From Ilex aquifolium (taxonomy: Eukaryota > Streptophyta > Magnoliopsida > Aquifoliales > Aquifoliaceae), in the NCBI GenBank assembly GCA_951799425.1, contig OX637405.1, positions 27,816,635 to 27,880,634 on the forward strand: a stretch of DNA of 64,000 nucleotides, written 5' to 3'. Positions 21,273 through 55,660 of the stretch are shown here, piece after piece (the stretch's first letter is position 1; each line of letters opens with the position of its first letter). The translations under genes and the position numbers were made by a program. Below the pieces are notes generated by a model. That model searched no databases. It was not told the DNA's origin and saw only the letters and a program-made list of their open reading frames with translations.

Positions 21273-22658
21273 TGATTACGCCCAAAGAATAACACGGTAA
21301 TTGTAGCACAGCTTTGGGGTGTCGATTCCACAGAGAGACAAATTAAAAGAATAATAGACAGCAACAAAGAAACTAAAGAAAAATATTAAATGATTACTGG
21401 AGAATAAAGATTAATTTTAAATTCAAATTAAAGTGAAACAAAGTAACTAACGTAAAAAGTACTCAAATTTGACAAACAGTAAAGCGACGGGAATCCCTTG
21501 CACAAATCTGGTATTTTAATTATTCTTAATTTATTGAATAACTCAATTAGGAATTCAATTCCCAAAATTCCCAACCGGAAGGTATAGATTTATAAACCAA
21601 GATCAAACCACATGTAACCCTTTTGAAAAATCATTCCCCACTTTGAAAACATGTAAATTATTATCACTATTGAGAAAATCCAACGACGACAATATACTCA
21701 AGAAGCAATATTGCAGCAAAGAATTAAATCAATATAGATAAATAATTGATCCAAACATAATCAAGAACTAATCCATTCAATAGAAAAAGCATGACTGAAT
21801 CCATAAATAGAATAAATTCTATGACTATTCGGAGAAGAAAATACCAACAATAAATTGAGAATGGTAAAACAAAAGAGTCTTTCTAATTAGAAATCAAATA
21901 CATAAATTAAAAATAAATAAAATACCATCTACTGTGCAAGATCATCCATCGCCTTACTTGAGAATTTAGTTACCCATAAATATAATGGACAACAAAAATC
22001 TCCCAAAGAAATAAAACAAACCGGTGGTCATCGGCCTGATTCTCGCGTACTGCTTCGTCGTCCGCCCTCTGCCTAGAACAGCGCCTCCTCCCACCTTTTT
22101 GTTTTTTTCTCCAGCCGCCAGCCACAATGAATATAAGAATGAAAAAGCCAACCCTTTATATAGGAAAAGGTCAAAGCCAAAGTCCAGCCGCCACATGCAA
22201 GGAAAAGGAAAAGGGTTTTTTATTAAAAGTCTAACTCCTTGGTTTGAAAATAACATCTTCCACCCTTCTCTTTTTCAGCTTTTCTATTTCAATCCCTTTT
22301 GATTTCAGCTTTTCTTCTTCAGCCCCTAAAGTCCAAACCCACTTGTATTTGGAAAAGCTAAAGCCCAAATCTGTTGAGTGATGGGTCCAATTGACAACTG
22401 CATCAATTTCAGCTCTTTTTACTCCATGGGCTGCGATCAAAATAAAAACAAATATAAAAGCCCAATTGTAAATTATCTCTCACCAACCAATAATGCAATA
22501 TTTAAGATGTAAAATATTATAAAATCATGCTCAAATATATTTCAATGTGAATAGATATTAAATTCAATAATATAAATTATATCTAATTATTTCTATTCAC
22601 ATTTTAGCATTTTAATCCAATAATAGGGTATTTAGAATGCACTTTCGCGCACTCATCA
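21273..22658 (-). repeat. 3' LTR of Athila-1
   Basis: 1,386 bp, TG...CA. Differs from the 5' LTR at 22141, 22262 and 22333 only, by eye. TATA-like word at 22154-22164 on the minus strand. Confidence 0.93.
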
Positions 22659-24223: not shown

Positions 24224-25728
24224 TGACTTGATCCGAAATGTGTACACCCAAGTGCAGGCGGTCAAGCTGTAGTAATAATCCGGTTTGAGTCCAGAGTCGA
24301 ATCCTCAGGGAACTATGGTTGGTGTTCTTTGAAGTAAATAGTGAGAAAAACTTGTAACTGGAAATATTATGATTTTGAAGTTGTGGGAAGTTTTGGATAG
24401 AATGTAAGATTCTTTCCAATGGGTATTTTTCTAGACAAAATATAAGATGATTAAATGTAACAAACACTCTTTGGTTCGGGAATCAGAATATGTAGTTGAT
24501 TATCCGGTGCATTATGTTTATGTTTTATAACTCAATTAACTCCCGTGTCAACGGCAAATTAATCGGAAGATAGGAATGAAGTGCAATAATGGTGGACATT
24601 GAAAGTTTGTCATGAAGAGTTAGTTAGGGTACTTGCCTTGAATCAATGGATCTTTCCATGTAGGAGTCATCCATTTATCATAGAAATATCCGTTGATTAT
24701 ACAAAGTACCTTTACTTTGCTAGGTGCATTCAATCACTCAAAAATCAAGTGGAGTATAGAACATTTAAGCATAAAGGTGATACACAAACATAATGTCCGG
24801 ATTAATCTTTTACATATCTATCATCCCTTCCCAAAGAGTGAATGAGGACTACTCACCCTTCATAGCTATGGTAAAGCTAGAATGATGAATGGTACTCATC
24901 CCCAAAAGGTGTTACAAAGTAAAATGCTCAAGCAATGGAAGTAAAAGAAAACAATACTTAAATTAAAAGAAAGCAATAATTACTTGGTGTTTAATTCACA
25001 ACCAAGAGATAATAAAAACATAAAAGAAAACAACAACTTCTTGGTGTTTAATCCACAACCAAGATATAATAAAAACATAAAAGAAAACAATAACAATCTT
25101 GGTGTTTAATCCACAACCAAGATCTAAAACATAAAAGAAAACACTTAGTAGAGGAGGCTCAGCCTTCCATTATATTTATATAAGCAAGTAAATATAAAAG
25201 CTATAAAGAAATGACAATTATAAAAAAAGAACTCTTACCATAAGAACATAAGCATAAAATCTTCAATACATGAATTGAAATGGAAGCTACAAAAGATGAA
25301 AGAAATTTTGCTCTCTAAAAACTCTCCTCTAAAATCTCTCCCCTTACAATAACTCTCTTGGTTTTTCTCTCCGTTCCAGGCCCAGATCCCCCTTTGAAAT
25401 GCAGAAGGAGCAGCTTATTTATAGGCGTAGGAAGGCTGGGCAAGTGGGCAAGTGGAGAATGAACGGTGGTGTTGCTGAATGCTGATTTTTCAAATGCTTT
25501 TATTACACTTTGTCATGCTTTTATTACACTTTGTCCTTCATTCTTTGCATTCTCCTGACATTGCTCCCTTGGTCTTGCGTTAATTCGGCATTTGTCCCTC
25601 AGATGTACTTCTTGGATGCCTTTGGACTTTCCTTCACTTTAGAACCTAAAATATCATCATTTAAACTCCATCAAAGTATAATTAGTCCAAAAAGAGTGTA
25701 ACAATATGCTACTTTTGAGTGCTAATCA
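24224..25728 (-). repeat. 3' LTR of Athila-2
   Basis: 1,505 bp. I see no difference from the 5' LTR in the stretches compared. TATA-like word 'CCTATAAATAA' on the minus strand at 25415-25425. Confidence 0.95.
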
Positions 25729-27204: not shown

Positions 27205-27474
27205 TAAACATACTCATTTATCTATGAAAATTGAAAGAAGACTAGATGCACCAATTAAACTTGAAAAACTATGACGTCTCAGGATAAGTCCCTACCCACA
27301 CTACAGGTTGGCATTTTAGGACATTCCTTACTCAGCCCACATACTCATTTATCTATGAAAATTGAAAGAAGATAAAATGCACAAATTGAACTTGGAAATT
27401 TATGGCGTCTCAGGATCAAATCCCTACCTACACTGTTAGTTGGTAGTTCGGGACGTTCCTTACTCGGCCCATAT
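27205..27474 (-). repeat. Two tandem copies of about 135 bp resembling the 3' part of the adjacent gene
   Basis: The unit starts 'catactcatttatctatgaa' and ends 'ccttactcagccca', and occurs at about 27209-27338 and 27339-27472 with about 80% identity. Its end words 'ggcgtctcagga' and 'ccttactcagcccat' match, in the same order, the DNA encoding 'GLSKDYPDTP' in the two genes at 27585 and 29902, but with about 50 extra bases between them. They may be decayed part-copies. Confidence 0.5.
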
Positions 27475-27584: not shown

Positions 27585-28010
27585 CTAATCCGAGTCATCG
27601 CTTGGATCTATGTCATTATCAGTGACCCTTCCAACTTCTTGTCGCACATAACTTGTAAGTCCCGGACTGGCATAAGATGGCGTGTCAGGATAATCCTTAC
27701 TTAGCCCATACACTATCCAGTTTAATCGATCGGTTGCACGACCCGAAATTGGTTCAGAACACTGATTATGTTTTTTCATATGAAATATCCTGCCACAATG
27801 GTAACAAGCACCCAGTCGTTTGGAACGACGATGTTTAGCAAAATTGCTTCTGCCACACAATGGTTGTTGTTGTTTCTCTCGGATCTCAATTTTTCTCACA
27901 TCCCTTGCTTTTCTCATTATCACAGCATGCACATCAGATGAGAAAATGCGTAGAACTCCTAGACTAAACCAAAAAAATTTAGGATCCATGCTTGCTAAGA
28001 CTAAAGACAT
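27585..28010 (-). CDS. Cys-rich basic protein, viral NABP-like, copy B
   Basis: 141 residues. N-terminal 'FFWFSLGVLR' (from residue 12), a charged linker, the basic block 'CGRSNFAKHRRSKRLGAC' (52-69), then a cysteine/histidine cluster C69, C72, H77, C84 (CX2CX4HX6C), the invariant block 'SEPISGRATDRLNWI' (85-99), 'GLSKDYPDTP' and an acidic C-terminus 'DPSDDSD'. It aligns without gaps to copy A for 113 residues, 79 identical. ATG at residue 8 (27987-27989), in good context and conserved in both copies, is an alternative start. The layout of basic stretch, zinc-binding cluster and acidic tail recalls the small nucleic-acid-binding proteins of carlaviruses and vitiviruses. Role here unknown; nucleic-acid binding is the reasonable guess. 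Confidence 0.75.
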   Translation of the reverse strand: MSLVLASMDPKFFWFSLGVLRIFSSDVHAVIMRKARDVRKIEIREKQQQPLCGRSNFAKHRRSKRLGACYHCGRIFHMKKHNQCSEPISGRATDRLNWIVYGLSKDYPDTPSYASPGLTSYVRQEVGRVTDNDIDPSDDSD

Positions 28011-28576
28011 TCTATCTGGTTCTTTAACGTCTGCCAGTCACAAAGACAGTTGAAGCTGCATCCGATGTGATCATGAAATACAAGTACAAATACTAAAAAA
28101 AACGCGATCCAGAAAAATAATTTTTTTTTTTTTTTTCAGATCTAAAACTAAAATTACAAATACGAAACTAGAGAAAGTATACCAAAATACAAGCGGAAGG
28201 AAGAAGATTTAGGATGAAACAAACAAATTAACGAAGAAGGAATAAACCCAGAATACATAGGATTGAGGAGGATTATTTGGCAAATTATCAGATCTTACTG
28301 TAACAGCAATTACAACATAGTCATTGGAGGGCATAGCAAATTCACAAGGAATTTTATAAAGACAAATAGCCATCAGAATCACAAGCTGTAGATATCAAAT
28401 TTCAAATATATATATAAATGAAATTACAAACAAGCAATACTTACAACACTAGCACTAGTGGGCTAGTGGAGATAAGGTTGCAGTAGTGAAAGTGTATGAC
28501 GCTTGGAAATGAGGTTGTAAGGTACAGATCTGTTCATCTGCCGAAACCTACAAACAAAATACAACAATTACTCAAC

Positions 28577-28708
28577 TCAAGGAATATCTGGGTTTCTCTG
28601 GAAACTCCTCATCCTAAGTGTGAGAACACAAAGAGCACCCAGGTACACATACAAACATATAAGACAAATTATTAAACAAAAGACTGGATCGTCGGCGTAT
28701 ATGGTCAT
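28577..28708 (-). CDS. One-helix membrane micro-peptide, copy B
   Basis: 43 codons from ATG 28706-28708 to TGA 28577-28579. It opens 'MTIYADDPVF', runs through about 20 hydrophobic residues ('CLIICLICLYVYLGALCVL'), then basic residues and 'NPDIP'. The same plan, M-x4-DDP, hydrophobic helix with 'CLY', then 'NPDxP', is found in the peptide at 30632-30778. Both sit in the same place, 0.3-0.6 kb ahead of the cysteine-rich gene. The conservation of frame and motifs between copies is the main support; length alone would not convince. Function unknown; likely a membrane-anchored peptide if made. Confidence 0.5.
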   Translation of the reverse strand: MTIYADDPVFCLIICLICLYVYLGALCVLTLRMRSFQRNPDIP

Positions 28709-28739
28709 GGATTTACAGGGGGTGAGTTGTTTTTACAGA

Positions 28740-28905
28740 GAACAGAAAGAACGACGACGAAGAAGAAGAGAAGAAAAAGAAAGAGAAGAAGAGAAGGGAA
28801 AGAGAAAAGGGGAAACCAACACCGGTGATGGTGGAAGAAAAAGAAAAAGGTGGAAGGCCTAATAAAGGCATTCCTCAGATTTTTTTTTTTTTTTTTTTTT
28901 TTTTA
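28740..28905 (-). other. Polypyrimidine tract ahead of cassette B
   Basis: The minus strand is a long CT-rich run preceded by an A/T homopolymer (28880-28903). It lies in the same place relative to the small genes as the tract at 30800-30912, and its upstream side repeats the tip of pol ('CGCTTGCCGACAC', 'TGCCTTTAT'). Confidence 0.6.
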
Positions 28906-29884
28906 ACTTTACTTTCGGCAGTGTCGGCAAGCGCAAATCATGGCAGCAGGCGCAATAATGGTGCATAGTAATAAAAATGAGTAGGGTAAGAGAACACCTC
29001 GCACTTGAGTTTTGACCCATGCACCGATATCTGAAACTAGGAACAACAAAATTATACAACAAAAGAAAGTGACATGCATTAAAAATAACATTAATAAATA
29101 AAAGTAACTGTACTTCACTCACGGTTCCAACAAAGAACCAGCCAAACACTAAATTTTATACCATTAATTGCACACACCCACATTTTCTAAAATGTAATGA
29201 ATGGACGGCTGCCTACTTTTGACTTTTGTTTTTTTTTTTTTTTTTTTTTTTGTGCCAGTCTTCACGTGGCTGAAGACTCAATTATCATAAAAGTTAAAAT
29301 AGTTATACTTTGCTCCCCTATATTCCACTTATTATATATATTAACCACAAAACTTAACTATTCCTTATACTTTCCCATCAAAACTCATAATATATATACT
29401 TAAACTATTGTCAAAAATTTCAAAAATTTGGGATCTCACAATCTACCCTCCTCAAAAGAATTTCGTCTCCGAAATTCCTTAATTCACCAAAAATCCCAAA
29501 ATTTGTAGGGGTACAAAGTGTAACACTAGAAAGAAAAAAAATATAAAGTGTTTATTATTCAAAAGAAAGGGGTGTTATTGAATTTTTTTCAATAAAGTTG
29601 TAATTATTCTCAATTCACTAAACCGAATGAATATAAAATTTCAGATTTTACACTACTAACCCCTTTATTTTACTTATTATATATTTCAACCTCTCTATTT
29701 TACTTATTATATATTCCAACCCTTTTTTTTTTTTTTTTCTACACTATATTATGCATACTAAAAGGAATCAAAATAAACATTCTTAAGCCAAAAGAGTTTG
29801 TACAGAACATAAAAAAAAAAAAATAAAATAAAATAAAATAAAATTTACAGACTCGGACCTTCAGCTTTCATTCCCAACCTCAGT
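28906..29884 (-). other. AT-rich DNA between the two cassettes, with an LTR-like boundary
   Basis: At 29428-29480 the minus strand reads 'GGAGACGAAATTCTTTTGAG' then 'GAGGGTAGATTGTGAGATCCC', the form seen where chromovirus-type Ty3 pol ends at its polypurine tract and 3' LTR. A TATA-like 'GGTATAAAATTT' follows at about 29155-29166. A short tandem 'tttacttattatatattyc' lies at 29670-29720. It may be a partial insertion of a third retrotransposon; I could not find its other end. Confidence 0.35.
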
Positions 29885-29901
29885 ACACTTTTCCACAGAG
29901 G

Positions 29902-30333
29902 TCAATCCGATTCCCCCTCCGTATCTGTGTAAAATGGACAACCAGTAACTCTCCCAACTTCCTCTCTCACAAATCGGTTAAGCACAGTACCGGAATAGCA
30001 TGGCGTATCAGGGTAATCCTTACTCAGCCCATGTTTTATCCAGTTTAATCGATCGGTTGCGCGACCGGAAATTGGTTCAGAACATTTGTTGTATCTTTTC
30101 TCATGAAAGTATCTGCCACACTGTTTACAGGCACCAAGTCGTGTAGCACGACGACGTTTAGAATAACTGCTTCGGCCACAGAGGGGTTTCGCTTGTTTTT
30201 CTTTGATTTCAGCCTTCCTTACTAATCTTGTTTTTCTCATGATCATGGTATGTACATCAGATGGAAAAGTACGTAGGACTCCTAGACTAAACCAAAAAAG
30301 ATTTACATCCATGATTGCTACTCTATGACCCAT
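29902..30333 (-). CDS. Cys-rich basic protein, viral NABP-like, copy A
   Basis: 143 residues. 'LFWFSLGVLR' near the N-terminus, a lysine/arginine-rich linker, 'CGRSSYSKRRRATRLGAC' (52-69), cysteine/histidine cluster C69, C72, H77, C84, 'SEPISGRATDRLNWI' (85-99), 'GLSKDYPDTP', and an acidic tail 'DTEGESD'. It has the same strand as gag-pol and lies about 590 nt after its stop. In the block for 'PISGRATDRLNW' the two copies differ at two bases, both silent third positions, which suggests selection on the protein. The residue-8 ATG (30310-30312) is an alternative start. Family link to carlavirus/vitivirus nucleic-acid-binding proteins is my recognition of the pattern; a domesticated retroelement zinc finger is the alternative. 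Confidence 0.78.
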   Translation of the reverse strand: MGHRVAIMDVNLFWFSLGVLRTFPSDVHTMIMRKTRLVRKAEIKEKQAKPLCGRSSYSKRRRATRLGACKQCGRYFHEKRYNKCSEPISGRATDRLNWIKHGLSKDYPDTPCYSGTVLNRFVREEVGRVTGCPFYTDTEGESD

Positions 30334-30505
30334 TATCTGGTTCTTTTACGTCTTCCAGTCACAAAGACGATCAAAACTGACCCACAGATATTATCATTAA
30401 TACAAGGTACATAATCTGAACAGATACAACAATAAAAACAAAAAAATTTACAGAAAATTTTACGGGTTCAACCTGCGCAGATCAACTACTGTAAACTGTA
30501 GATCT

Positions 30506-30543
30506 CACCCCCCAACCTAGACTGAACATTGTCCCCAATGTTT
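30506..30543 (-). other. Internal polypurine-like motif of Athila-2
   Basis: Minus strand 'CATTGGGGACAATGTTCAG' then 'GGTTGGGGGGTG', matching the Athila-1 motif at 24105-24148. It lies between the micro-peptide and the cysteine-rich gene of cassette A. It could act as a second plus-strand primer or be a left-over of the ancestral 3' end. Confidence 0.6.
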
Positions 30544-30631: not shown

Positions 30632-30778
30632 TTAAGCATTTTTGGGGTGGTCTGGGTTTTCATTGGGACAAAAACCCTTGATCATCAGTGCGGCCCGAAG
30701 AAGAACAGCCATAAGTAAATAATACAAACAAATGTAGATCATGAGAAGGAGGATAGGGTCATCGAAAAATGCAGACAT
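30632..30778 (-). CDS. One-helix membrane micro-peptide, copy A
   Basis: 48 codons starting at ATG 30776-30778: 'MSAFFDDPILLLMIYICLYY', then 'LLMAVLLRAALMI' and a polar tail with 'NPDHP'. One hydrophobic helix of about 22 residues. The same frame is open upstream to 30982 through poly-Phe coding in the CT tract, which I regard as chance. Paired with the peptide at 28577-28708 by the DDP, CLY and NPDxP motifs. Function unknown. Small one-helix proteins are also encoded near the nucleic-acid-binding gene in carlaviruses, but no sequence link is claimed. Confidence 0.5.
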   Translation of the reverse strand: MSAFFDDPILLLMIYICLYYLLMAVLLRAALMIKGFCPNENPDHPKNA

Positions 30779-30799
30779 GGTACTGTTATGGGTTGGATC

Positions 30800-30912
30800 G
30801 TGGTACAGAAGACCAGATGCAGTGGAGAAGAAGAAGAAAAGAGAAGAAAAAGAAGAAGAAAAAGAAAAGAAAAGAGTAAAGGCGGTGGGGAAAAGAAAAA
30901 AGAAAAAAAACG
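30800..30912 (-). other. Polypyrimidine tract ahead of cassette A
   Basis: About 110 nt almost purely C/T on the minus strand, starting within 15 nt of the pol stop, where 'CCTTTATAAAGCC' also makes a TATA-like palindrome overlapping the TAA. A candidate splice acceptor region, leader or internal promoter for the small genes. Confidence 0.5.
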
Positions 30913-30921
30913 ATGGGGGCT

Positions 30922-33900
30922 TTATAAAGGCAGTCCATCGTGTCGGGTGTCTGATTGACCCGACCCTTTTTTGTGTCGGCAAGCGTAATCTCCGGAGTGA
31001 TTTCCGGAGATACTTTCTGGATCCATAAAAAAAATGGTCTCCACATTTTGGACAAAATTCTCCACAAAGGGTTTTAATCGCTGACCATTGACGGTAAAAA
31101 TGTTACCGTTTGATGGGTTCTCCACTTCCACTGCCCCATGTTCAAATACCTTTTTAACAATGTATGGTCCAGTCCATCTTGATTTCAACTTACCAGGAAA
31201 TAGGCGAAGTCTCGAATTGAAAAGTAGAACCTTTTGATCAGGTTCAAAAGATTTTCGCACTATGTTCTTGTCATGAAAAATTTTCATCCTGATTTTTGCA
31301 ATCTTAGCATTTTCATATGCTTCATTTCTCAATTCCTCCAATTCATTAATCTGAAGCTTCCGTGACAGTCCAGCCTTGTCTAAGTCAAAATTCATTGCTT
31401 TAATAGCCCAGTATGCCCTATGTTCCAATTCCACAGGCAAGTGACATGGCTTTCCATAGACTAATCGATAGGGAGACATGCCCAAAATTGTTTTAAAAGC
31501 AGTTCGGTATGCCCAGAGCGCATCAGTTAGTCTTAATGACCAATCTTTGCGATCTGGGTTCACCGTTTTTTCCAAAATTAATTTGATCTCCCGATTAGCT
31601 AACTCAGCTTGTCCACTGGTCTGTGGATGATAAGGGGTTGCAATTTTGTGAAAAATCAAGTATTTTTTCATTAAATTCCAGAAGGGACGATTGCAAAAAT
31701 GAGAACCCCCATCACTTATAATGGATTTTGGAATTCCAAACCGAGATAAAATATTTTCTTTTAAAAACTTGATCACTGTTTGATGATCATTATTTCGGCA
31801 TGGAATTGCTTCAACCCATTTGGATACATAGTCTACGGCTACTAAAATGTATAGATAGCCAAAGGAGGGGGGAAATGGTCCCATAAAATCGATACCCCAA
31901 CAGTCAAAAATTTCGATTACCAAAATTGGGTTTAAGGGCATCATGTTTCTTTTTGAAATGTTTCCCAACCTTTGACATCTATCGCAAGTTACGCAAAAAG
32001 CATGGACATCTTTGAAAAGTGTGGGCCAGTAAAATCCACACTGCAAGATTTTTGCAGCGGTTTTTCGAGATGAAAAATGACCACCACATGCTTCTGAATG
32101 ACAAAATGTTATTACCTGTCTACTTTCCTGAGCGGGGATGCAACGTCTTATGATCTGATCCTTACAGTACTTGAATACGTAGGGATCTTCCCAAAAGAAA
32201 TTACGGACCTCCCTCAGAAACTTCTTTTTGTCCATGGGAGTGAAAAATGGAGGAAGTGTTCCGGTAGCAAGGAAATTAGCAATATCAGCATACCATGGGG
32301 TCTCATCAATCCTGAATAGTTGTTCATCGGGGAATTTTTCATTGATTGGCAGTCCATCCTCATGAAATTCATAAGTTAATCTCGACAGATGATCTGCCAC
32401 CACATTTTCCACACCCTTTTTGTCCTTAATGACTAAATCAAATTCTTGGAGCAAGAGGATCCATCTCAAGAGCCTTGGTTTGGCATCTTTTTTTGTAAGC
32501 AAAAATTTCAGTGCTGCATGGTCAGTAAATACAGTAACAGAAGAACCAACAAGATAAGATCGAAATTTTTCCAATGCAAATACTACAGCAAGTAATTCCT
32601 TTTCAGTTGTTGAGTAATTCATTTGGGCATCATTTAAAGTTTTACTTGCATAGTAAATCACATGTGGCTTCTTATCTTTTCTTTGTCCCAAAACAGCACC
32701 TACAGCATAGTCACTAGCATCACACATCAATTCAAAGGGTAGAGTCCAGTCAGGAGGTTGCATTATTGGGGCAGAAATTAACATGCCTTTGAGTTTGTCA
32801 AAGGATTTTTGGCACGCTTCATTCCAGTCGAAAATGACATCCTGACTCAAAAGATGACACATAGGTTTTGCTATGGTGCTGAAGTCTTTTATGAACCTTC
32901 TGTAGAATCCTGCATGACCTAAGAATGATCGAACATCCTTTACAACCCTAGGAGCAGGAAGATTTCTTATCAAATCAATTTTTGCTTTATCAACTTTCAT
33001 GCCTTCAGACGACACAATGTGACCCAAGACAATGCCTTGATTCACCATGAAATGACATTTCTCCCAGTTAAGCACCAGATTTGCCTCTTTGCATCTCATC
33101 AAAACTTTTTCTAGGTTAGCTAGACACAAATCAAATGAGTCACCATATACCGAGAAATCATCCATGAAGATTTCCAAAAATTTTTCGACCATGTCACTGA
33201 ACAAGCTCAGCATACATCTTTGAAATGTTGCAGGAGCATTACAAAGTCCGAATGGCATCCTTTTGAATGCAAAGGTGCCAAATGGACATGTGAATGTGGT
33301 CTTTTCTTGGTCATTCAGAGCTATCTCAATTTGATTGTATCCGGAATACCCATCCAGGAAACAGTAAAATTCATGGCCTGCTATTCTCTCGAGGACTTGG
33401 TCAAGGAAGGGAAGAGGAAAATGGTCTTTTCTAGTCACCAGATTGAGTTTTCGATAGTCAATGCACATTCGCCATCCTGTGACGACTCGTGTTGGCACGA
33501 GTTCATTTGCATCATTTTTGACTACTGTGACTCCAGATTTCTTTGGTACAACTTGGGTTGGACTAACCCATTTGCTATCGGAGATAGGAAAAATTATCCC
33601 TGCATCCAGGAGTTTGAGCACTTCCAGTCTCACAACCTCTTTCATGTGAGGATTCAATCGTCGCTGCATTTGACGAGAGGGTTTTGAGTCCTCTTCAAGG
33701 TATATAGCATGATTACAAATTAACGGGCTTATACCTTTCAAATCAGCGATGGTCCACCCAATGGTGCTTTTGTGACTTTTAAGAACTTCAATTAATTGAG
33801 CTTCTTGCAAGTCTGTGATTTTTGAAGAAATTACTACTGGGTAAGATTTATCCTCACCTAAAAATGCATACTTGAGATCAGATGGGAGCGGTTTCAGTTC

Positions 33901-36522
33901 AGGCTTTGGTGGCCTGTCACTTGAAGATAGTGGTTTTGTACCACTTGATGAAATTTCTTCAAATTTAGGAGCCCATGTCCCCACATTGAAGGTAGGGCAC
34001 TCAATGGAGTTTTGTTCCAGAGAGTCAGATGAGTCAGATTTTGACAAAGTTGATTCACTAAGATCCTCACAGAATGAGTCATTCAGATGTGCTTGTATCA
34101 ATGACTCAATGGAATTTATTTCTCCTACCTCCTCGTACTCTCTTGGGTGTTTTGCAATGTCAAAGACGTTCATTTCGAGAGTCATATCCCCAAAAGTCAA
34201 TTTCATAATACCATTCCTGCAATTGATTAGTGCATTGGAGGTTGCTAGAAAAGGTCGACCAAGAATGACAGGAATTGGAGTTTCTGAATGAACTTCTGGA
34301 TGAGTATCTAGAACAATGAAGTCTACAGGGAAGACAAAATTATCCACTTGAACAAGTACATCTTCAACAATACCCCTAAGAATTTTTACAGATCTATCTG
34401 CCAATTGGAGTGTGGTGCAAGTGGGTTTCAGTTCACCTAAACCCAACTGCTGGTAGACAGAGAAAGGAAGCAAGTTGACACTAGCTCCAAGGTCTAACAA
34501 TGCTTGCTCAATTTTGAAATTTCCAATGACACATGACACAGTGGGACACCCTGGATCTTCGCACTTTGGAGGAATTTTGTGTTGAAGTAGGGCACTGGCT
34601 TGCTCTGTGAGGAAGGCTCTTTTTTGAACATTTTGGCTTCTTTTGACTGTGCACAAGTCTTTTAGAAACTTGGCATAAGCTGGAACCTGTTGGATTGCAT
34701 CCAGAAGTGGGATGTTGATTTTTACTTGCTTGAAAAGCTCGTAAATTTCAGACTGATTGTTTGCTTTCTGTATGCTCTTGAGTCTATGAGGGAAAGGAGC
34801 AGGAATAGAACACGAGGGTTCTTCCTCCCTTGATGGCTCTAGTTCTTGTTCAATAATGGGATCACAGTTATTTTTTGTTGCAAGTTCTGGCTCACTTAAT
34901 GGGTTGGCTGGAATTGAGTCTGGTTTTGGGTCTGGAATCAGCATGTTTCTGATGGACTTGTCAATCTTTTTTCCACTTCTCAATGTGGTGACAGTTTTGG
35001 CTTGGTCTTGTGGAGTTTCCATAGTTGATGGATTTCCCACCTGAAATTGGCCTTGTGGAAGCTTTGGTTGGGCAGGAAATTTTCCCTTCTCATGTGTGCT
35101 CATGGACTGGGTCAGCTTTTGAATGTGACCTTTGAGATCCTCAAAAGATTGTGTGGTCTGGGCCTTGAAATCAATAAAAGCCTGAGTAAAACTATTGTTA
35201 TAGCTCATTTGGGTTTGCATGAATTGATTCAATGTATCTTCAAGGTTCCTTTTGTGTGGTGGTTGATATGGAGGATATTGTGGAGGTCCTTGAGGTGGTT
35301 GTGGTGGCCCTTGTGGATGAGGATATTGTGGAGGTCCTTGAGGTGGTTGTGGTGGCCCTTGTGGCTGATTCATGGGGGTTGGTTGTGTGTTTCTCCAACT
35401 GAAATTTGGGTGGTTCCGCCACCCTGGATTGTATGTTTCAGAGTATGGGTTGGAGTAAGACTTGTTGAAATTGGAAATGGCATTTGTTTGTTCCAACAAA
35501 ACTTCTTTGAATGCCGGAATGGTCGGGCATTCCCCAGTAGGATGCCCTGTTAGTGCACAAATCCCACACACTTGTTCTGTGGGAGGGACAACATCAACTT
35601 GATGGACCTTTTTCATCTCTAAAGCTTCAAGCTTTCGAGACAAAGTGGACATTTTTGCTCTAAGATCATCATCTTCTCTCAAGACATACTTACCCCCTTG
35701 GAAAGTAGGTGGTTTGGCTGGTACAGTGGTAGGAGAGGCTGAGTCCCACATTTGAGAACTGTCAGATATGGTATCAAAAAAATTGAATGCCTCCTCCGGA
35801 CTTTTTCCCATGAACTCTCCTTGAGCCATCATTTCGACAAACTGTCGTAATCTAGAGGGTAAGGAGTCATAGAAAAATCCTACCAATGTCCAATTTTCAA
35901 AAGCATGATGTGGGCAAGATTGGAGTAGATCTTTGAATCTCTCCCAACTTTGATAAAAAGTTTCTCCTTCTTTGACTTCAAAATTCATGATTTGCCTTTT
36001 GAGTGTACTAGTGCGGTGCAAAGGAAAGAATTTTCTGAAAAATTCATTCTGTAGAGCCTGCCAATTAGGGATTGAAAGAGATTTTAAAGAATGTAACCAT
36101 TGTTTGGCTTTATCCCTCAAAGAGAAAGAAAACAATTTCATTTTTGTCAATTCAGAATTGTCTTGAAATGTTCCACACACTTCTTCGAAGTCTTTGATAT
36201 GCAGATACGGATTTTCTGCATCCGATCCATGAAACACGGGCAATAACTGCACTGTCCCCGGCTTTACAGTAAAGAGGGGAGCATTTTCAGGAAAAATAAA
36301 ACAAGAGGGGACACTATTCCTTGTGGGATGTAAGTAATCTCGCAATGTTCGAATGTTGGGTACTTCCCCCTCTCTCACATGATCTTCACCCTGCCTGTCA
36401 ATATTTGCCATATTGAAGTTACAAGAATCGGCTTCTGATTTGGGTGAAAGTGGTTCAAGTTGATTTACAGACCCAGAAGATTCAGCAGGCAAATTTTGAA
36501 AGAGGCGATTGGTGTCAGTCAT
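30922..36522 (-). CDS. Athila-2 gag-pol polyprotein, intact (1,866 aa)
   Basis: One uninterrupted frame. Gag occupies about residues 50-300, followed by a CX2CX4HX4C zinc knuckle ('[14 protein letters not shown]', about 317-331) and a proline/glutamine repeat region (about 365-425, '[14 protein letters not shown]'). The aspartic protease has '[12 protein letters not shown]' (about 675). Reverse transcriptase has '[11 protein letters not shown]' and the catalytic 'FMDDFSVYG' (about 1117). RNase H has '[13 protein letters not shown]' (about 1267) and '[11 protein letters not shown]'. Integrase has an HHCC finger (about 1475-1512), then D, D and E in 'WGIDFMG', 'ISDGGSHF' and 'ELANREI' (about 1547, 1605, 1642). 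The motifs fit the Athila branch. Every catalytic residue I checked is present, so the element may be functional. Confidence 0.95.
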
Positions 36523-36623: not shown

Positions 36624-36640
36624 CCCCGGCAACGGCGCCA
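36624..36640 (-). other. Primer-binding site of Athila-2 (tRNA-Asp)
   Basis: The plus strand reads CCCCGGCAACGGCGCCA, equal to the 3' end of plant tRNA-Asp(GTC) with CCA; the element's own strand is therefore complementary. It is six bases from the 5' LTR. Confidence 0.85.
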
Positions 36641-36646: not shown

Positions 36647-38151
36647 TGACTTGATCCGAAATGTGTACACCCAAGTGCAGGCGGTCAAGCTGTAGTAATA
36701 ATCCGGTTTGAGTCCAGAGTCGAATCCTCAGGGAACTATGGTTGGTGTTCTTTGAAGTAAATAGTGAGAAAAACTTGTAACTGGAAATATTATGATTTTG
36801 AAGTTGTGGGAAGTTTTGGATAGAATGTAAGATTCTTTCCAATGGGTATTTTTCTAGACAAAATATAAGATGATTAAATGTAACAAACACTCTTTGGTTC
36901 GGGAATCAGAATATGTAGTTGATTATCCGGTGCATTATGTTTATGTTTTATAACTCAATTAACTCCCGTGTCAACGGCAAATTAATCGGAAGATAGGAAT
37001 GAAGTGCAATAATGGTGGACATTGAAAGTTTGTCATGAAGAGTTAGTTAGGGTACTTGCCTTGAATCAATGGATCTTTCCATGTAGGAGTCATCCATTTA
37101 TCATAGAAATATCCGTTGATTATACAAAGTACCTTTACTTTGCTAGGTGCATTCAATCACTCAAAAATCAAGTGGAGTATAGAACATTTAAGCATAAAGG
37201 TGATACACAAACATAATGTCCGGATTAATCTTTTACATATCTATCATCCCTTCCCAAAGAGTGAATGAGGACTACTCACCCTTCATAGCTATGGTAAAGC
37301 TAGAATGATGAATGGTACTCATCCCCAAAAGGTGTTACAAAGTAAAATGCTCAAGCAATGGAAGTAAAAGAAAACAATACTTAAATTAAAAGAAAGCAAT
37401 AATTACTTGGTGTTTAATTCACAACCAAGAGATAATAAAAACATAAAAGAAAACAACAACTTCTTGGTGTTTAATCCACAACCAAGATATAATAAAAACA
37501 TAAAAGAAAACAATAACAATCTTGGTGTTTAATCCACAACCAAGATCTAAAACATAAAAGAAAACACTTAGTAGAGGAGGCTCAGCCTTCCATTATATTT
37601 ATATAAGCAAGTAAATATAAAAGCTATAAAGAAATGACAATTATAAAAAAAGAACTCTTACCATAAGAACATAAGCATAAAATCTTCAATACATGAATTG
37701 AAATGGAAGCTACAAAAGATGAAAGAAATTTTGCTCTCTAAAAACTCTCCTCTAAAATCTCTCCCCTTACAATAACTCTCTTGGTTTTTCTCTCCGTTCC
37801 AGGCCCAGATCCCCCTTTGAAATGCAGAAGGAGCAGCTTATTTATAGGCGTAGGAAGGCTGGGCAAGTGGGCAAGTGGAGAATGAACGGTGGTGTTGCTG
37901 AATGCTGATTTTTCAAATGCTTTTATTACACTTTGTCATGCTTTTATTACACTTTGTCCTTCATTCTTTGCATTCTCCTGACATTGCTCCCTTGGTCTTG
38001 CGTTAATTCGGCATTTGTCCCTCAGATGTACTTCTTGGATGCCTTTGGACTTTCCTTCACTTTAGAACCTAAAATATCATCATTTAAACTCCATCAAAGT
38101 ATAATTAGTCCAAAAAGAGTGTAACAATATGCTACTTTTGAGTGCTAATCA
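36647..38151 (-). repeat. 5' LTR of Athila-2
   Basis: 1,505 bp, apparently identical to the 3' LTR. Promoter and transcription start should lie here. Confidence 0.95.
37838..37848 (-). promoter_or_regulatory. TATA-like element of the Athila-2 5' LTR
   Basis: The minus strand reads CCTATAAATAA inside the 5' LTR; the best TATA candidate there, start site not known. Confidence 0.55.
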
Positions 38152-38307: not shown

Positions 38308-41300
38308 TCAAGGTTGATAGACCGGATCCTCAAGTGGAATGTCTTCCACGATTGGAACTTGTCTATCAATTAATACTTTAAGGCGCTGACCATTTACTTT
38401 AAAGATCCGACCATCCTTAAGATCCTGTATTTCCACCGCCCCATGTGCAAAAATATTTTTCACTACAAAAGGCCCAGTCCACCTAGACCTAAGTTTTCCA
38501 GGGTGCTTATGGAGTCTAGAATCATACAAGAACACTCGATCATTAGGCTTAAACGTTTTTCTCAAAATATTTTTATCATGAAATGCTTTCATTTTAGCCT
38601 TATAGATTTTAGAGTTCTCATAAGCATCATTTCTCAACTCCTCTAACTCGGTCAACTGAAATTTTCTAAGCTTACCTGCTTCTCCCATGTCAAAGTTGAA
38701 TTGTTTGATGGCCCAATAGGCTCGATGCTCAAGCTCTACAGGTAAGTGACAAGGCTTTCCAAAAACAAGCCTATAAGGTGACATGCCTAAAGGAGTTTTG
38801 AAAGCTGTACGGTAGGCCCAAAGCGCATCAACTAGTCTCAAAGACCAATCCTTGCGATCTGCGTTAACCGTTTTTTCTAAAATTTGCTTAATTTCCCTGT
38901 TTGCAAGTTCTACCTGTCCACTTGTCTGAGGGTGGTAGGCAGTAGAGATCTTATGTACCACCCCATATTTTTTCATCAAAGCTTCAAAAGAACGGTTGCA
39001 AAAATGCGTACCCCGGTCACTAATGATAGCTCGTGGTATACCAAATCGAGATAATACATTTTCTTTGAGAAATTTAATTACCGTCTTATTATCATTACAC
39101 CTGCAAGCTGCTGCCTCTACCCATTTTGACACATAATCTACTGCCACAATAATATATTGATATCCAAAAGAAGGAGGAAATGGTCCCATAAAATCAATAC
39201 CCCAACAATCAAAAATTTCAATCACTAAAATTGGGTTTAAGGGCATCATGTGACGACGGGACATGGCTCCTAACTTTTGACACTTTTCACATGAGCGACA
39301 ATAGATATTTGCATCCTTAAACAAGGTGGGCCAATAAAATCCACACTGCAGAATTTTTGCAGCGGTTTTCTTCATAGAAAAATGGCCTCCACAAGCTTGA
39401 GAATGACAAAATTCCAAGACGCTGGCAATCTCCTCATCAGGGATGCAACGCCTTAAAATTTGGTCAGGACAGTATTTGAAAAGAAAAGGGTCATCCCAAT
39501 AGAAATTACGTACCTCAGTCATGAACTTCCTCTTGTCCTGAGCGCTCCAATCCACTGGTAACTCACCTGCAACCAAATAATTCACAATATGAGCAAACCA
39601 TGGTAGAGAAGTAATAGAAAGTAAATGCTCATCGGGAAAATCATCCCTGATTGGCAGGTGGTCAGAGGTATCCTCAAATGTGAGCCTCGAGAGATGGTCA
39701 GCCACTACGTTCTCCACTCCTTTCTTGTCTTTGATGGTAATATCAAATTCCTGCAAAAGTAAAATCCACCGTATTAATCGTGCCTTAGCATCCTTCTTTG
39801 TAAGAAGGTACTTAAGGGCTGCATGATCTGTGAAAACAATAATAGGAGAACCAATCAAATAAGCACGAAACTTATCCAAAGCAAACACTACAGCTAGTAA
39901 CTCTTTTTCCGTGGTGGAGTAATTCATCTGAGCACTATTTAGAGTTCTACTAGCATAATAAATGACAAAAGGCTTCCCCTCTCTTCGCTGTCCAAGAACA
40001 GCACCTACAGCAAAATCACTAGCATCACACATGATCTCAAAAGGTAAAGTCCAGTCAGGTGGCTGCATTATGGGTGCTGAGGTAAGCTTGCCAATTAGCA
40101 TTTTAAATGCCTCTTGACAAGCTTGTGTCCACTCAAATGGGGCATCTTTAGCTAGGAGGTCACATAATGGTCTAGAGATGGTGGAAAAATTTTGTATAAA
40201 CCTCCTATAAAAACCCGCATGACCAAGAAAGGATCTCACATCCTTTACTGTCCTAGGTGTAGGCAACTTAGAGATTAATTCAATCTTAGATTGATCAACC
40301 TCTATCCCCCTAGAAGAAATAATATGCCCTAAGACAATACCTGAAGGTACCATAAAGTGGCATTTCTCCCAATTCAGAACCAATTTCTTTTCCTCACAAC
40401 GAGTCAACACTCTCTCTAAATTCAATAAGCATGCATCAAAAGAAGATCCAAAAACAGTTAAGTCATCCATAAAAACTTCCATGCAATTTTCAACTATGTC
40501 ACTAAAAATACTCATCATGCAACGTTGAAAAGTAGCAGGTGCATTACACAATCCAAATGGCATTCTACGAAAAGCATAAGTACCAAAAGGACAAGTAAAA
40601 GTGGTTTTTTCCTGATCTTCTAATGCAATTTCAATTTGATAATAACCAGAATAACCATCCAAGAAACAATAAAAAGGATGACCAGCCACACGCTCAAGAA
40701 TTTGATCAATAAAAGGGAGAGGAAAATGGTCTTTCCGGGTGGCAGCATTCAATTTTCTGTAATCAATGCACATCCGCCACCCAGTCACAAGTTTTGTAGG
40801 GACTAACTCTCCTAGGTCATTTTTTACCACAGTAACACCTGACTTTTTAGGAACAACCTGTGTAGGACTTACCCATTTACTATCAGCAATAGGATATATG
40901 ATTCCTGCATCTAATAGTTTCAAAACTTCATTTTTTACCACTTCTTTCATAGTGGGATTAAGTCTACGCTGGGGGTCTCTACGAGGGCTAGTTCCTTCCT
41001 CCAAATTAATTTTATGAGAACAGACCAGGGGACTAACACCTTTTATATCAGCAATGTTCCAACCTAAGGCTGACTTATGCTCACTCAGGGTCTGAATTAA
41101 TTTCTCATCTTGAGACTCAGACAATTCAGATGAGATAATAACAGGAAAAGTATCACCTGGACCAAGGAAAACATGCTTTAAGCCCTTAGGCAAAGGCTTC
41201 AATTCAACTTTGGGTGCTTCCACACTTGAAGGAATTTGTTTTTCACCTTTCTCAGGTAACTCCTCAAATTTCGGTTGCCATGCCCGAGTGCCATAGTCCT

Positions 41301-43680
41301 GAGTCCTATCAAAAATAGCACAAATATCAACTACATCAGATGGATCACTGATAGAATCAAACTCAGAATGAACAAGAAAATATTCAAGGGGATCAAAATC
41401 ATGAGCTATAGAAACTCCCTTATCCATGAGTGAGTCAATCATGTATGTCTGGTGGCTCTCGTCATCATCTTCTGGCTGTTTTGCAATATGAAAGATATTC
41501 ACCTCGAGAGTCATGTTTCCAAAAGACAGCTTCATGAGCCCGTTCCTGCAATTAATAAGAGCATTAGCAGTGGCAAGGAAAGGCCTACCTAAAATCAAAG
41601 GAATTTTAGAAGTAGTATCAACAACAGAACTAGTGTCAAGGATTAGAAAATCAACAGGATAATAAAATTTATCAATTTGAATTAGAACATCATCTACCAC
41701 ACCCCGAGGTACTTTGACTGAACGGTCAGCCAATTGCAATACCACAGTGGTTGGTTTGATTTCACCCAATCCCAACTGCAAATAAATAGAATATGGCATT
41801 AGATTGACACTAGCTCCTAAATCTAGCAAAGCTTGCCCAAACTCATTATTTCCAATGCTGCATGCAATGGTTGGGCAACCAGGATCCTTGTACTTGGGAG
41901 GAATCCGCTGCTCAATTAGAGCACTAACTTGCTCTGTCAGGAATGCTGTCTTCTTCACATGGTGCTTCCTCTTGACTGTACACAAATCCTTGAGAACCTT
42001 TGCATAAGTAGGTACTTGTTTAATCACATGCAAAAGAGGAAGATTGATTTTTACCTGCCTTAGATTCTCTAGGATTTCATTGTTAGCATCCAGAGTTCTC
42101 TTGCTTGATTTTAAAGCTTGAGGGAATGGTACCTTAGCAAGACTCTTTGTCACCTCAGGTTCCTTGGGCAGCTCGGCATCAATATTATCTTGATCATCTG
42201 ATTTGTCCGTTGTTGGAGTGTGTAATGACTCACCACTTCGTGTCACAATGGCATTCACATCCTTCAAATTCTCTTGTGCCATGTGTTGACCATGGGGTGC
42301 AGACTGAGCTTGAGAAGGGAACTTACCTCGCTCATTCACACTCAAGGAGCTCATCAATTTGGACATTTGGCTTTTTATCTCCTTGTTTTCTTCAACAACC
42401 TGCACAATTAAAGATTCAAACTTTTGGTTAGTCTTACCCTGTGTTTCAATAAAAGCATGCAAAGTGTCTTCTAAAGGACTCCTAGACGATGTAGGTGCAT
42501 GATAAGGTGCAGTGTATGATCTAGGGGGTTGTGCAGGTGGCTGATTTTCAGACTTCCAGCTAAAATTGGGGTGATTGCGCCACCCTGGATTATAGGTATC
42601 AGAGTAAGGTGTAAAAGGCTTCTTGTACATACCTAAGGCATTACATTGTTCCTCATACATCCCTCTCATCTCAGCAAGTGTGAGACATTCTTGGGCGAGG
42701 TGATCTACCCCACCACACACAAAACATGGTCCAAAAGACTCTGCATGATTAGCCACATGTGTTGGTTTTAAGTCCTTAGTCTTTAACACATCTAACTCCC
42801 TAGTGAGCATCTCAACCTTAGCCTTTAGGCTATCATCTTCCCTGAGATGGTAAATTCCACCACCAGTTGGGTTCCCTGCAGGTCGTGACCTATTTGTGCT
42901 TTCAGTAGCACTAGGTCCAGTCCAAGTGTGAGCTTTTTCAGCAAGCTCATTGAGGTATTCTATGGCCTCATCAGGATCTTTTTGTAAGAACTCACCATTA
43001 CACATCATCTCCACAAATTGGCGTTCTCTAGGTGTAAGTCCCTCATAAAAATAGCTCACTAAACGCCAATTCTCATACCCATGGTGAGGACACACACTCA
43101 ACAACTCCTTAAATCTCTCCCAAGACTGATACAAAGTCTCACTGTCCTTTTGTGCAAAGGTGGAGATTTGCCTTTTCAAAGCATTGGTCTTATGTTGGGG
43201 GAAATATTTATTAAAGAAGACCTGAGTCATCTCACTCCACGTCCCAATAGATCGTGGTCTCAGCGAGTATAACCAACTCTTAGCTCTATCCTTTAAAGAG
43301 AAAGGAAAGAACTTAAGTCTCACAACATCATCAAGTGCAATTTGATTATGAAAAGTCGCAACTACTTCCTCAAACTCTCTAATGTGCACATATGGATTTT
43401 CATTTTCCAAGCCATGAAAATTAGGGAGTAACTGTATCATCCCTGTTTTAAAATCTAGTTGGCGAGTATTAGCTGGAAACATGATGCATGATGGTGTGGC
43501 TGTGCGTGTAGGGTGCAAGTAATCATGAAGAGTTCTAATGGGTTGATCTTCGTGTTCACCCATTTCTTCGGGACTCAATGGATTGTCAAATAAAGGATTT
43601 AAAAAATCTGAGTCTAACTCTACCACAGGCCTACTAGCAAATCTACCCAAGGTGTCTCTATATCTGTGCATGCAAGACAA
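38308..43680 (-). CDS. Athila-1 gag-pol polyprotein, intact (1,790 aa)
   Basis: Uninterrupted frame with the same order as Athila-2: gag (about 60-300), zinc knuckle '[14 protein letters not shown]' (about 317-331), protease '[12 protein letters not shown]' (about 620), reverse transcriptase '[11 protein letters not shown]' and 'FMDDLTVFG' (about 1066), RNase H '[13 protein letters not shown]' (about 1220), integrase HHCC (about 1428-1467) and D, D, E in 'WGIDFMG', 'ISDRGTHF', 'ELANREI'. The pol half is very similar to Athila-2 and the gag half much less, so they are different families of one branch. It lacks the proline/glutamine repeat of Athila-2. Confidence 0.95.
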
Positions 43681-43851: not shown

Positions 43852-45237
43852 TGATTACGCCCAAAGAATAACACGGTAATTGTAGCACAGCTTTGGGGTG
43901 TCGATTCCACAGAGAGACAAATTAAAAGAATAATAGACAGCAACAAAGAAACTAAAGAAAAATATTAAATGATTACTGGAGAATAAAGATTAATTTTAAA
44001 TTCAAATTAAAGTGAAACAAAGTAACTAACGTAAAAAGTACTCAAATTTGACAAACAGTAAAGCGACGGGAATCCCTTGCACAAATCTGGTATTTTAATT
44101 ATTCTTAATTTATTGAATAACTCAATTAGGAATTCAATTCCCAAAATTCCCAACCGGAAGGTATAGATTTATAAACCAAGATCAAACCACATGTAACCCT
44201 TTTGAAAAATCATTCCCCACTTTGAAAACATGTAAATTATTATCACTATTGAGAAAATCCAACGACGACAATATACTCAAGAAGCAATATTGCAGCAAAG
44301 AATTAAATCAATATAGATAAATAATTGATCCAAACATAATCAAGAACTAATCCATTCAATAGAAAAAGCATGACTGAATCCATAAATAGAATAAATTCTA
44401 TGACTATTCGGAGAAGAAAATACCAACAATAAATTGAGAATGGTAAAACAAAAGAGTCTTTCTAATTAGAAATCAAATACATAAATTAAAAATAAATAAA
44501 ATACCATCTACTGTGCAAGATCATCCATCGCCTTACTTGAGAATTTAGTTACCCATAAATATAATGGACAACAAAAATCTCCCAAAGAAATAAAACAAAC
44601 CGGTGGTCATCGGCCTGATTCTCGCGTACTGCTTCGTCGTCCGCCCTCTGCCTAGAACAGCGCCTCCTCCCACCTTTTTGTTTTTTTCTCCAGCCGCCAG
44701 CCACAATGAATATAAGAATCAAAAAGCCAACCCTTTATATAGGAAAAGGTCAAAGCCAAAGTCCAGCCGCCACATGCAAGGAAAAGGAAAAGGGTTTTTT
44801 ATTAAAAGTCTAACTCCTTGGTTTGAAAATAACATCTTCCTCCCTTCTCTTTTTCAGCTTTTCTATTTCAATCCCTTTTGATTTCAGCTTTTCTTCTTCA
44901 GCCCCTAAAGTTCAAACCCACTTGTATTTGGAAAAGCTAAAGCCCAAATCTGTTGAGTGATGGGTCCAATTGACAACTGCATCAATTTCAGCTCTTTTTA
45001 CTCCATGGGCTGCGATCAAAATAAAAACAAATATAAAAGCCCAATTGTAAATTATCTCTCACCAACCAATAATGCAATATTTAAGATGTAAAATATTATA
45101 AAATCATGCTCAAATATATTTCAATGTGAATAGATATTAAATTCAATAATATAAATTATATCTAATTATTTCTATTCACATTTTAGCATTTTAATCCAAT
45201 AATAGGGTATTTAGAATGCACTTTCGCGCACTCATCA
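43852..45237 (-). repeat. 5' LTR of Athila-1
   Basis: 1,386 bp. Three substitutions against the 3' LTR by eye. Confidence 0.93.
44733..44743 (-). promoter_or_regulatory. TATA-like element of the Athila-1 5' LTR
   Basis: The minus strand reads CCTATATAAAG; the best TATA candidate of this LTR. Confidence 0.55.
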
Positions 45238-48547: not shown

Positions 48548-48589
48548 TTTGCCCCCCAATTCCCTGTGTCCAATGTAACTTTGGAGAGG

Positions 48590-49420: not shown

Positions 49421-49549
49421 GTAATCCCTCGGGTTACAGACGACCTAAGTTTCAAGATCCTGCCTAGAAATGGCAAAAATAATGTTATTCTAAACATTAA
49501 AATATTTAACATGATTACCTGGAGAGAGAGGTAGGCTGCTTGCGTGAGA

Positions 49550-52418: not shown

Positions 52419-52460
52419 AGATTTAACAGAGAAAGTGTTTTAGAAGTGAGAATTTTGTCT

Positions 52461-54502: not shown

Positions 54503-54522
54503 GTTTGGCGCCGTCTGTGGGA
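54503..54522 (+). other. Primer-binding site of TRG-2
   Basis: GTTTGGCGCCGTCTGTGGGA directly after the LTR. Confidence 0.7.
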
Positions 54523-55658: not shown

Positions 55659-55660
55659 CC

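What the first reader, a model, noticed from the sequence alone, without database searches (positions are those of the whole stretch)
27585..30333. Two viral-NABP-like cysteine-rich genes carried by an Athila-like retrotransposon
Seen: two minus-strand genes after pol, 141 and 143 codons, gap-free over the first 113 residues with 79 identities by my count. Both have the order basic block 'CGRS..(A/S)K.RR...LGAC', C69-C72-H77-C84, 'SEPISGRATDRLNWI', 'GLSKDYPDTP', acidic tail. Known: carlaviruses and vitiviruses encode small nucleic-acid-binding proteins with a Gly-Arg-Ser/arginine-rich stretch before a zinc-binding cluster, and several act as RNA-silencing suppressors. Inference: the retrotransposon has captured, or shares ancestry with, such a gene, and may use it against host silencing. 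I know of no description of this in Athila elements.
Basis: partly seen in the sequence, partly recalled or inferred. Interest (0 to 1): 0.93.

Follow-up and report, generated by a model that had tools for sequence, protein, structure and literature searches.

The report
Plant retrotransposon carrying virus-type zinc-finger genes
A young, multi-copy plant retrotransposon carries two intact copies of a small zinc-binding gene otherwise known from plant RNA viruses, where such proteins often block RNA silencing, which suggests that a jumping gene may use a virus-type tool against its host's defences.

Summary
Two minus-strand genes (N1 30333-29902, N2 28010-27585; 79 of 113 residues identical) match Pfam Viral_NABP (E 1.8e-10, 4.6e-11) and Carla_C4 above curated cut-offs. 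The nearest named relatives found are NABPs of apricot vein clearing associated virus and peach mosaic virus.

Both lie between gag-pol and the 3' LTR of a young insertion (identical LTRs, 5-bp target duplication) nested in another element without them.

In the host's 800-Mb genome the 150 best N1 matches (of 4100 candidates) are all 98-100% identical, full length and stop-free. All 20 sampled copies carry T1-N1-T2-N2. N1 versus N2 gives dN/dS 0.24; within-family counts are too few to decide.

So this is a kept accessory module of a plant LTR-retrotransposon family, homologous to viral NABPs. Silencing suppression is inferred; direction of transfer is unresolved. No description was seen in the paper searches. 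Gaps: no deep viral tree, no old copies, no expression data.

The parts
36647..38151 (-). 5' LTR of the inner element (TGATTAGC...AAGTCA), preceded by target duplication CTTAG (38156-38152)
   Evidence: identical to the 3' LTR
36624..36640 (-). primer-binding site TGGCGCCGTTGCCGGGG
   Evidence: read; complementarity to tRNA-Asp and Athila usage are recalled
30922..36522 (-). gag-pol of the inner element, one 1866-aa ORF: gag, RT, RNase H and integrase above Pfam cut-offs, aspartic protease match just below its cut-off
30632..30778 (-). T1, 48-aa ORF with one hydrophobic stretch (residues 9-27, KD19 2.75)
   Evidence: intact in 21 of 21 copies including the window
30506..30517 (-). PPT-like motif GGTTGGGGGGTG between T1 and N1; the same motif stands just upstream of the 3' LTR
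   Evidence: read
29902..30333 (-). N1, 143-aa NABP-like protein: basic block plus CX2CX4HX6C
29114..29843 (-). spacer piece of about 700-730 bp holding a PPT plus LTR-start-like sequence of another gypsy type (chromovirus-like by recall); present in 11 and absent in 9 of 20 sampled copies, with slightly different ends in the copies that lack it
28577..28708 (-). T2, 43-aa membrane-protein ORF, paralogue of T1 (16 of 47 identical)
   Evidence: intact in 20 of 21 copies
27585..28010 (-). N2, 141-aa NABP-like protein, paralogue of N1
   Evidence: intact in 21 of 21 copies
27208..27471 (-). two tandem copies of about 132 bp without an open frame of note, each holding GGGCYRAGTAAGGA..YCC, a motif also inside the N1 and N2 coding regions
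24224..25728 (-). 3' LTR of the inner element, followed by target duplication CTTAG (24223-24219)
38308..43680 (-). gag-pol of the outer element (1790 aa); tblastn finds no N gene in the outer element

Best explanation
A plant Ty3/gypsy (Athila-like) retrotransposon family carries, between pol and the 3' LTR, two paralogous cassettes. Each has a small one-helix membrane protein (T) followed by a nucleic-acid-binding protein (N) homologous to the NABP/CRP of Betaflexiviridae and related viruses. Shown: the sequence homology, the position in the element, intactness and co-occurrence in the independent insertions sampled, and protein-level constraint between the two N genes. Inferred: N binds RNA or DNA through its basic block and zinc cluster and works as an accessory, counter-defence protein, most likely weakening small-RNA silencing of the element (as viral relatives do) and possibly acting on transcription in the nucleus. 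Expression from a promoter of its own or by splicing is also inferred. Whether the element took the gene from a virus or the reverse is not settled.
For: Pfam matches above cut-off for N1 and N2; 13 of 13 members of the first alignment match both families. The profile reaches AVCaV (1.6e-10) and peach mosaic virus (4.4e-6) NABPs. In the genome, 150 of 150 scored N1 matches are intact; 20 of 20 sampled copies carry T1-N1-T2-N2 in order. N1-N2 dN/dS is 0.24, with 35 of 72 differences at third positions. Coding segments differ less between copies (0.003-0.010) than four spacers (0.011-0.018, with 11-29 gap columns). In 4 of 4 other insertions tested, LTR pairs show 0-2 mismatches (and 0-21 gap columns) over 1318-1768 aligned columns. 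Viral relatives are silencing suppressors or nuclear activators (passages of PMC4472227; PMC12172455; PMC7588395).
Against: No activity was tested and no expression data were available. The zinc cluster is CX2CX4HX6C, a pattern absent from the two viral relatives. Those two viral proteins themselves fall below the Viral_NABP cut-off (21.9 and 13.9 bits against 23) and reach only Carla_C4. Within-family pN/pS rests on 0-5 synonymous variants per gene and does not exclude neutrality; N2 differs between copies (0.0098) almost as much as the least variable spacer (0.0111). The 150 and the 20 copies came from a list ranked by N1 protein similarity, so intact young copies are over-represented. The structure model was poor (pLDDT 54.6).
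Confidence: 0.6

Rival explanations
1. N is an accessory factor for the element's own replication (RNA chaperone, packaging, RNA export or transcription activator) with no effect on silencing; T is a small membrane anchor or a vestigial env-like protein.
For: Basic proteins (pI 9.4-9.8) with a CCHC cluster resembling a retroviral zinc knuckle (X6 instead of X4, knuckle spacing recalled); env-like position after pol (PMC7264820); one viral relative, CVB p12, is also a nuclear transcription activator.
Against: gag-pol already encodes the usual machinery, and the outer element of the same kind has no N gene, so N is not needed for this lifestyle as such. The profile relationship is to viral NABPs, not to nucleocapsids.
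Confidence: 0.3
2. N is a host zinc-ribbon gene (for instance ribosomal eL37/eL43-like) picked up by the element; the likeness to viral NABPs is convergent or both derive from the host gene.
For: Weak matches of the profile to eL37/eL43 chains (best E 0.069); one source names P0004 a ribosomal L37AE/L43A protein; one of 13 family members matches zf-C2HC_2 at E 0.002.
Against: Viral_NABP matches reach E 1e-10 to 1e-11 over 107-108 residues, beyond the zinc cluster. The alignment search (7996 candidates scored) returned, besides this group, only two viral NABPs. The host genome was not searched for a single-copy gene of this kind.
Confidence: 0.05
3. Passenger or transduced sequence without function, amplified in a recent burst.
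For: Copies are young (LTR pairs near identical); within-family pN/pS counts are few and not clearly below 1.
Against: N1-N2 dN/dS is 0.24 at dS 0.74, so both stayed constrained long after duplication. Homologues 65-82% identical, N1-type and N2-like, occur in other database sources. Frames are kept while spacers gather indels.
Confidence: 0.05

Closest known systems
Betaflexiviridae nucleic-acid-binding proteins (Pfam Viral_NABP PF05515, Carla_C4 PF01623), nearest found here: AVCaV and peach mosaic virus
   Same: Size (137-139 aa), alignable N-terminal region, CG-x-S basic block followed by a Cys cluster; N1 and N2 pass both Pfam cut-offs, the two viral proteins pass Carla_C4
   Different: Encoded by an LTR retrotransposon, in two copies, each after a small membrane ORF; Cys/His cluster CX2CX4HX6C; acidic tail
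Additional ORFs (env-like, Grande gene23 etc.) of plant LTR retrotransposons (PMC7264820, parts 1 and 2 of 3 read)
   Same: Extra ORF between pol and 3' LTR, sense strand, kept in the copies sampled; T has a membrane helix
   Different: That review reports no similarity of antisense aORFs to viral proteins; here the relation to a plant RNA-virus protein is clear
Insect retrotransposons with viral SF1 helicase domains proposed as silencing suppressors (PMC6338049, passages read; Lazareva 2015 seen only as a reference)
   Same: Retrotransposon with a domain related to RNA-virus proteins and a proposed anti-silencing role
   Different: Helicase domains within insect polyproteins; not a separate zinc protein, not in plants
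Phalaenopsis gypsy elements with an AlkB RNA demethylase (PMC9289625, abstract and section 12 read)
   Same: Accessory RNA-acting protein in a plant gypsy family, in a fold class that some Betaflexiviridae also use (recalled)
   Different: Enzyme similar to plant demethylases; the domains named in section 12 of that 121-genome screen do not include Viral_NABP (its supplementary list was not seen)

Membership tests
Viral NABP family (PF05515 / PF01623) | Profile score above curated cut-off | tested here: met
   N1 41.6 and N2 43.5 bits against 23; Carla_C4 26.3 and 24.5 against 20.9
Viral NABP family (PF05515 / PF01623) | CGRS / arginine-rich block before the zinc cluster | tested here: met
   CGRSSYSKRRR and CGRSNFAKHRR
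Viral NABP family (PF05515 / PF01623) | Cys cluster with the spacing seen in the viral relatives | tested here: not met
   CX2CX4HX6C in N1, N2 and 12 of the 15 non-viral homologues; absent from P0014 and P0015. Only these two viral proteins were compared; carlavirus and vitivirus spacing was not fetched
Viral NABP family (PF05515 / PF01623) | Gene 3' of the coat protein in a (+)RNA virus genome | tested here: not met
   Lies between gag-pol and 3' LTR; placement in viruses from PMC4472227 passages
Viral NABP family (PF05515 / PF01623) | RNA-silencing suppression | not testable with these tools
   Needs an assay
Ty3/gypsy LTR retrotransposon | LTR pair, 5-bp target duplication, PBS, PPT, RT-RNase H-integrase order after gag | tested here: met
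   other copies (protease match just below cut-off in the inner element)
Athila lineage | Placement by RT/integrase phylogeny | not tested
   Label rests on PBS and PPT motifs whose lineage is recalled
Endogenous non-retroviral RNA virus element | Further viral genes (replicase, movement, coat protein) beside it | tested here: inconclusive
   No further ORF of 100 aa or more between pol and 3' LTR besides N1, N2 and a low-complexity 116-aa ORF at 30632-30982 overlapping T1; decayed viral pieces were not searched for
Plant retrotransposon env-like gene | ORF after pol encoding a protein with membrane helix | tested here: inconclusive
   T1 and T2 have one hydrophobic stretch each but are only 43-48 aa; T1 matches no Pfam family, T2 only DUF3481 below cut-off (16.3 bits against 28.5)

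The most novel reading that the evidence does not exclude
A plant LTR-retrotransposon lineage has long carried its own duplicated membrane-protein plus silencing-suppressor module, and such elements, rather than RNA viruses, may be the older reservoir from which Betaflexiviridae acquired their patchily distributed NABP gene.
Probability: 0.2. Interest if true: 0.92.

Novelty: new variant of a known kind. Interest (0 to 1): 0.8.

Why it matters
It joins two fields kept apart: extra ORFs of plant LTR retrotransposons, whose origins and roles are mostly unknown, and RNA-virus silencing suppressors. If N suppresses silencing, it gives a concrete, testable answer to how a multi-copy family escapes small-RNA control in a large plant genome. 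It also opens the question of which way the gene moved between RNA viruses and retrotransposons.

Tried and rejected
Considered and rejected: (1) chance or spurious ORFs (150 of 150 scored matches intact); (2) host zinc-finger origin as the first choice; (3) N as a feature of the outer element too (tblastn finds N only at the two stated places in the window, other hits being E 1.4 or worse); (4) passenger sequence (dN/dS 0.24).

Led nowhere: IMG/VR scans with the N alignment, with gag-pol and with the AVCaV protein gave no relatives. The prokaryote genome scan and the phage tblastn gave none. The structure model had mean pLDDT 54.6, so no fold search was run. Paper searches for NABP or carlavirus-type proteins or captured suppressors in retrotransposons showed no such description; most were judged by title and start of abstract only (lists capped at 20 of 55 and 17 of 18), and the library holds only CC-licensed papers. 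The viral side of the tree holds only two long-branched sequences, so direction of transfer could not be read. Planned whole-genome searches for N2 and for a divergent N gene were sent but not answered; searches for older copies picked by neutral DNA and for single-copy host relatives were not sent.
Full report
WHAT IS THERE. The window holds two nested LTR retrotransposons on the minus strand. The outer one has LTRs at about 21273-22658 and 43852-45237 (99.6% identical), target duplication GATAT and a gag-pol ORF 43680-38308. Into it, just downstream of its pol, sits the inner one: LTRs 36647-38151 and 24224-25728, identical, target duplication CTTAG, an uninterrupted 1866-codon gag-pol ORF 36522-30922 with gag, RT, RNase H and integrase above Pfam cut-offs and a protease match just below its cut-off, and a 5.2-kb stretch between pol and the 3' LTR. 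That stretch carries the finding.

THE TWO GENES. Gap-free identity is 79 of 113. Both match Viral_NABP (E 1.8e-10 and 4.6e-11; 41.6 and 43.5 bits, cut-off 23) and Carla_C4 (26.3 and 24.5 bits, cut-off 20.9). All 13 rows of the first alignment match both families; one row also matches zf-C2HC_2 at E 0.002. The cluster is CX2CX4HX6C.

Each N gene is preceded by a short ORF: T1 (30778-30632, 48 aa) and T2 (28708-28577, 43 aa). Both encode one strongly hydrophobic stretch (19-residue mean hydropathy 2.75 and 2.82), and they are related to each other (16 of 47 identical). DNA similarity between the cassettes covers 30936-30564 with 28874-28501 (62%) and 30449-29943 with 28123-27620 (75%). So a T-N cassette was duplicated. 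A CT-rich leader with a TATAAA-like box stands before T1, which would suit an internal promoter; this is a reading of the sequence, not a test.

RELATIVES. A single-sequence search gave 11 proteins at E 0.01 or better among 21 candidates. The alignment search gave 15 among the 7996 candidates scored, a capped number: the 11 again, two more of the same kind (P0012, P0013), and two viral NABPs (AVCaV at 1.6e-10, peach mosaic virus at 4.4e-6). A third search, from P0012, gave 6 of 6 candidates, of which 2 were new (P0016, P0017). In all there are 15 non-viral proteins and 2 viral ones. P0012 and P0016 pass both Pfam cut-offs; the two viral proteins pass Carla_C4 (56.0 and 25.7 bits) but fall below the Viral_NABP cut-off (21.9 and 13.9 against 23). 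CX2CX4HX6C is kept in 12 of the 15; P0011, P0013 and P0017 lack it, as do both viral proteins. The tree, built from 18 sequences without the internally deleted P0013, groups N1 with six others (97/92) and P0012, P0016 and P0017 together (92/100, short of the tool's mark for firm support); 10 of 15 inner branches are unresolved, among them those around N2. With the shared N2-like residues of P0006-P0010 this suggests that the N1/N2 split is older than the divergence among these sources. Their organisms are not named and contigs are 0.5-3 kb, so whether each lies in a retrotransposon was not tested. P0004 (N1 type) and P0013 (N2-like, internally deleted) both give a longest contig of 2941 bp, which suggests, but does not prove, that they share one contig.

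GENOME-WIDE. The host assembly is 800 Mb in 103 contigs. Of 4100 first-look candidates for N1, the best 150 were scored; all 150 cover residues 1-143 at 98-100% identity without stops. The 4100 is not a copy number. In 29 of 30 fetched copies, one being the window's own, the element's sequence upstream of N1 continues through T1 into the end of pol; in L020 the match stops at 30386. Twenty copies taken across the ranking (10 shared with those 30) were fetched into the 3' LTR: 20 of 20 have T1, N1, T2 and N2 in order, without stops in the matched parts. Counting the window as well, N1 is intact in 21 of 21 (20; L036, which ends differently at its stop codon, is 143 aa), N2 in 21 of 21, T1 in 21 of 21 and T2 in 20 of 21 (L033 is frame-shifted near its start). 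Of four further copies whose 5' LTRs were fetched (4 of the 20), LTR pairs differ by 0-2 mismatches and 0-21 gap columns over 1318-1768 aligned columns, and two show 5-bp target duplications (GTTAA, GTCAT). For L035 the 3' LTR ran past the fetched stretch; for L037 the match ends early in the LTR and was not resolved.

SELECTION. N1 against N2 over 106 codons: dN 0.18, dS 0.74, ratio 0.24. Among the sampled copies, pairwise differences are 0.0062 (N1), 0.0098 (N2), 0.0032 (T1) and 0.0064 (T2), against 0.0111-0.0184 in four spacers with 11-29 gap columns (L036 was left out of the N1 figure and L033 out of the T2 figure, and one spacer was found in 20 of 21). Against this: N2 is only slightly below the least variable spacer. 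Variant counts are small (N1 4 synonymous and 6 non-synonymous, N2 5 and 12, T1 0 and 2, T2 2 and 3; pN/pS 0.43, 0.66, not defined, 0.42) and do not exclude neutrality. Spacers contain homopolymer runs that favour indels. The copies were ranked by N1 protein similarity, which biases N1 (less so N2, T1 and T2). In the first 30 copies N1 shows 7 synonymous and 2 non-synonymous codon variants, but that sample is the most biased. The conclusion of constraint rests mainly on N1 versus N2 and on homologues from other sources.

HOW IT PROBABLY WORKS. By analogy with the homologues, N binds nucleic acid by its basic block and zinc cluster. Viral relatives act as silencing suppressors: in grapevine virus A (passages of PMC4472227); the mandarivirus CYVCV, while in the related CiYMaV the zinc finger is needed for cell-death induction (passages of PMC12172455); and chrysanthemum virus B p12, a nuclear transcription activator and cytoplasmic suppressor that lowers small RNAs and shifts the prevalent class from 24 to 21 nt (passages of PMC7588395). 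A retrotransposon controlled by 24-nt siRNAs would profit from such an activity. This is inference. A role in the element's own RNA metabolism or transcription is the main rival. T might anchor N to membranes or be independent; no evidence separates these.

WHAT IS KNOWN. [quoted passage not shown] A screen of 121 angiosperm genomes (PMC9289625, abstract and section 12 read) found 15 atypical domains; those named in that section do not include Viral_NABP, and its supplementary list was not seen. Insect retrotransposons with viral helicases are a precedent for the idea (PMC6338049, passages). Searches showed no description of NABP-type genes in retrotransposons, judged mostly by title and start of abstract. 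The nearest class is therefore 'plant LTR retrotransposon with an accessory ORF', in a variant not seen described: a duplicated module related to RNA-virus NABPs.

VERDICT. Interest 0.8.

Noticed in passing
27319-27338, 27451-27470, 27688-27707, 30011-30030 (minus strand): GGGCYRAGTAAGGAHYRYCC, a pattern written from these places, occurs four times (0 in 100 shuffles): once in each N gene (encoding GLSKDYP) and twice in tandem repeats downstream. It may be a decayed N fragment or a nucleic-acid motif under its own constraint.
   Followed up: partly
30348-30368 and 28027-28047 (minus strand): GTCTTTGTGACTGG(A/C)AGACGT is kept just upstream of both N start codons within poorly conserved spacer; possible splice acceptor or leader element.
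   Followed up: partly
29843-29114: Piece with GGAGACGAAATTC...GAGGAGGGTAGATTGTGAGATCCC, looking like the PPT and LTR start of a different gypsy type (by recall), present in 11 of 20 copies and absent in 9 of 20; suggests recombination between element RNAs.
   Followed up: partly
30517-30506, and 24121-24111 in the outer element (minus strand): A second PPT-like GTTGGGGGGTG preceded by ATTGnGGACAATGTT stands after pol in both elements, far from the 3' LTR.
   Followed up: no
5867-7831 and about 19318-21033 (minus strand): ORFs that look like hAT-type transposases (by reading, no family search); the second is broken into several frames.
   Followed up: no
47852-57936: Large cluster of direct and inverted repeats, copies or arms 78-98% alike, with GC of 0.36-0.51 per 2 kb; nature not examined.
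   Followed up: no
L037 and L042 (with L053, L054): A second LTR subfamily (TGATTAACCCTA instead of TGATTAGCACTC) carries the same four-ORF module.
   Followed up: partly
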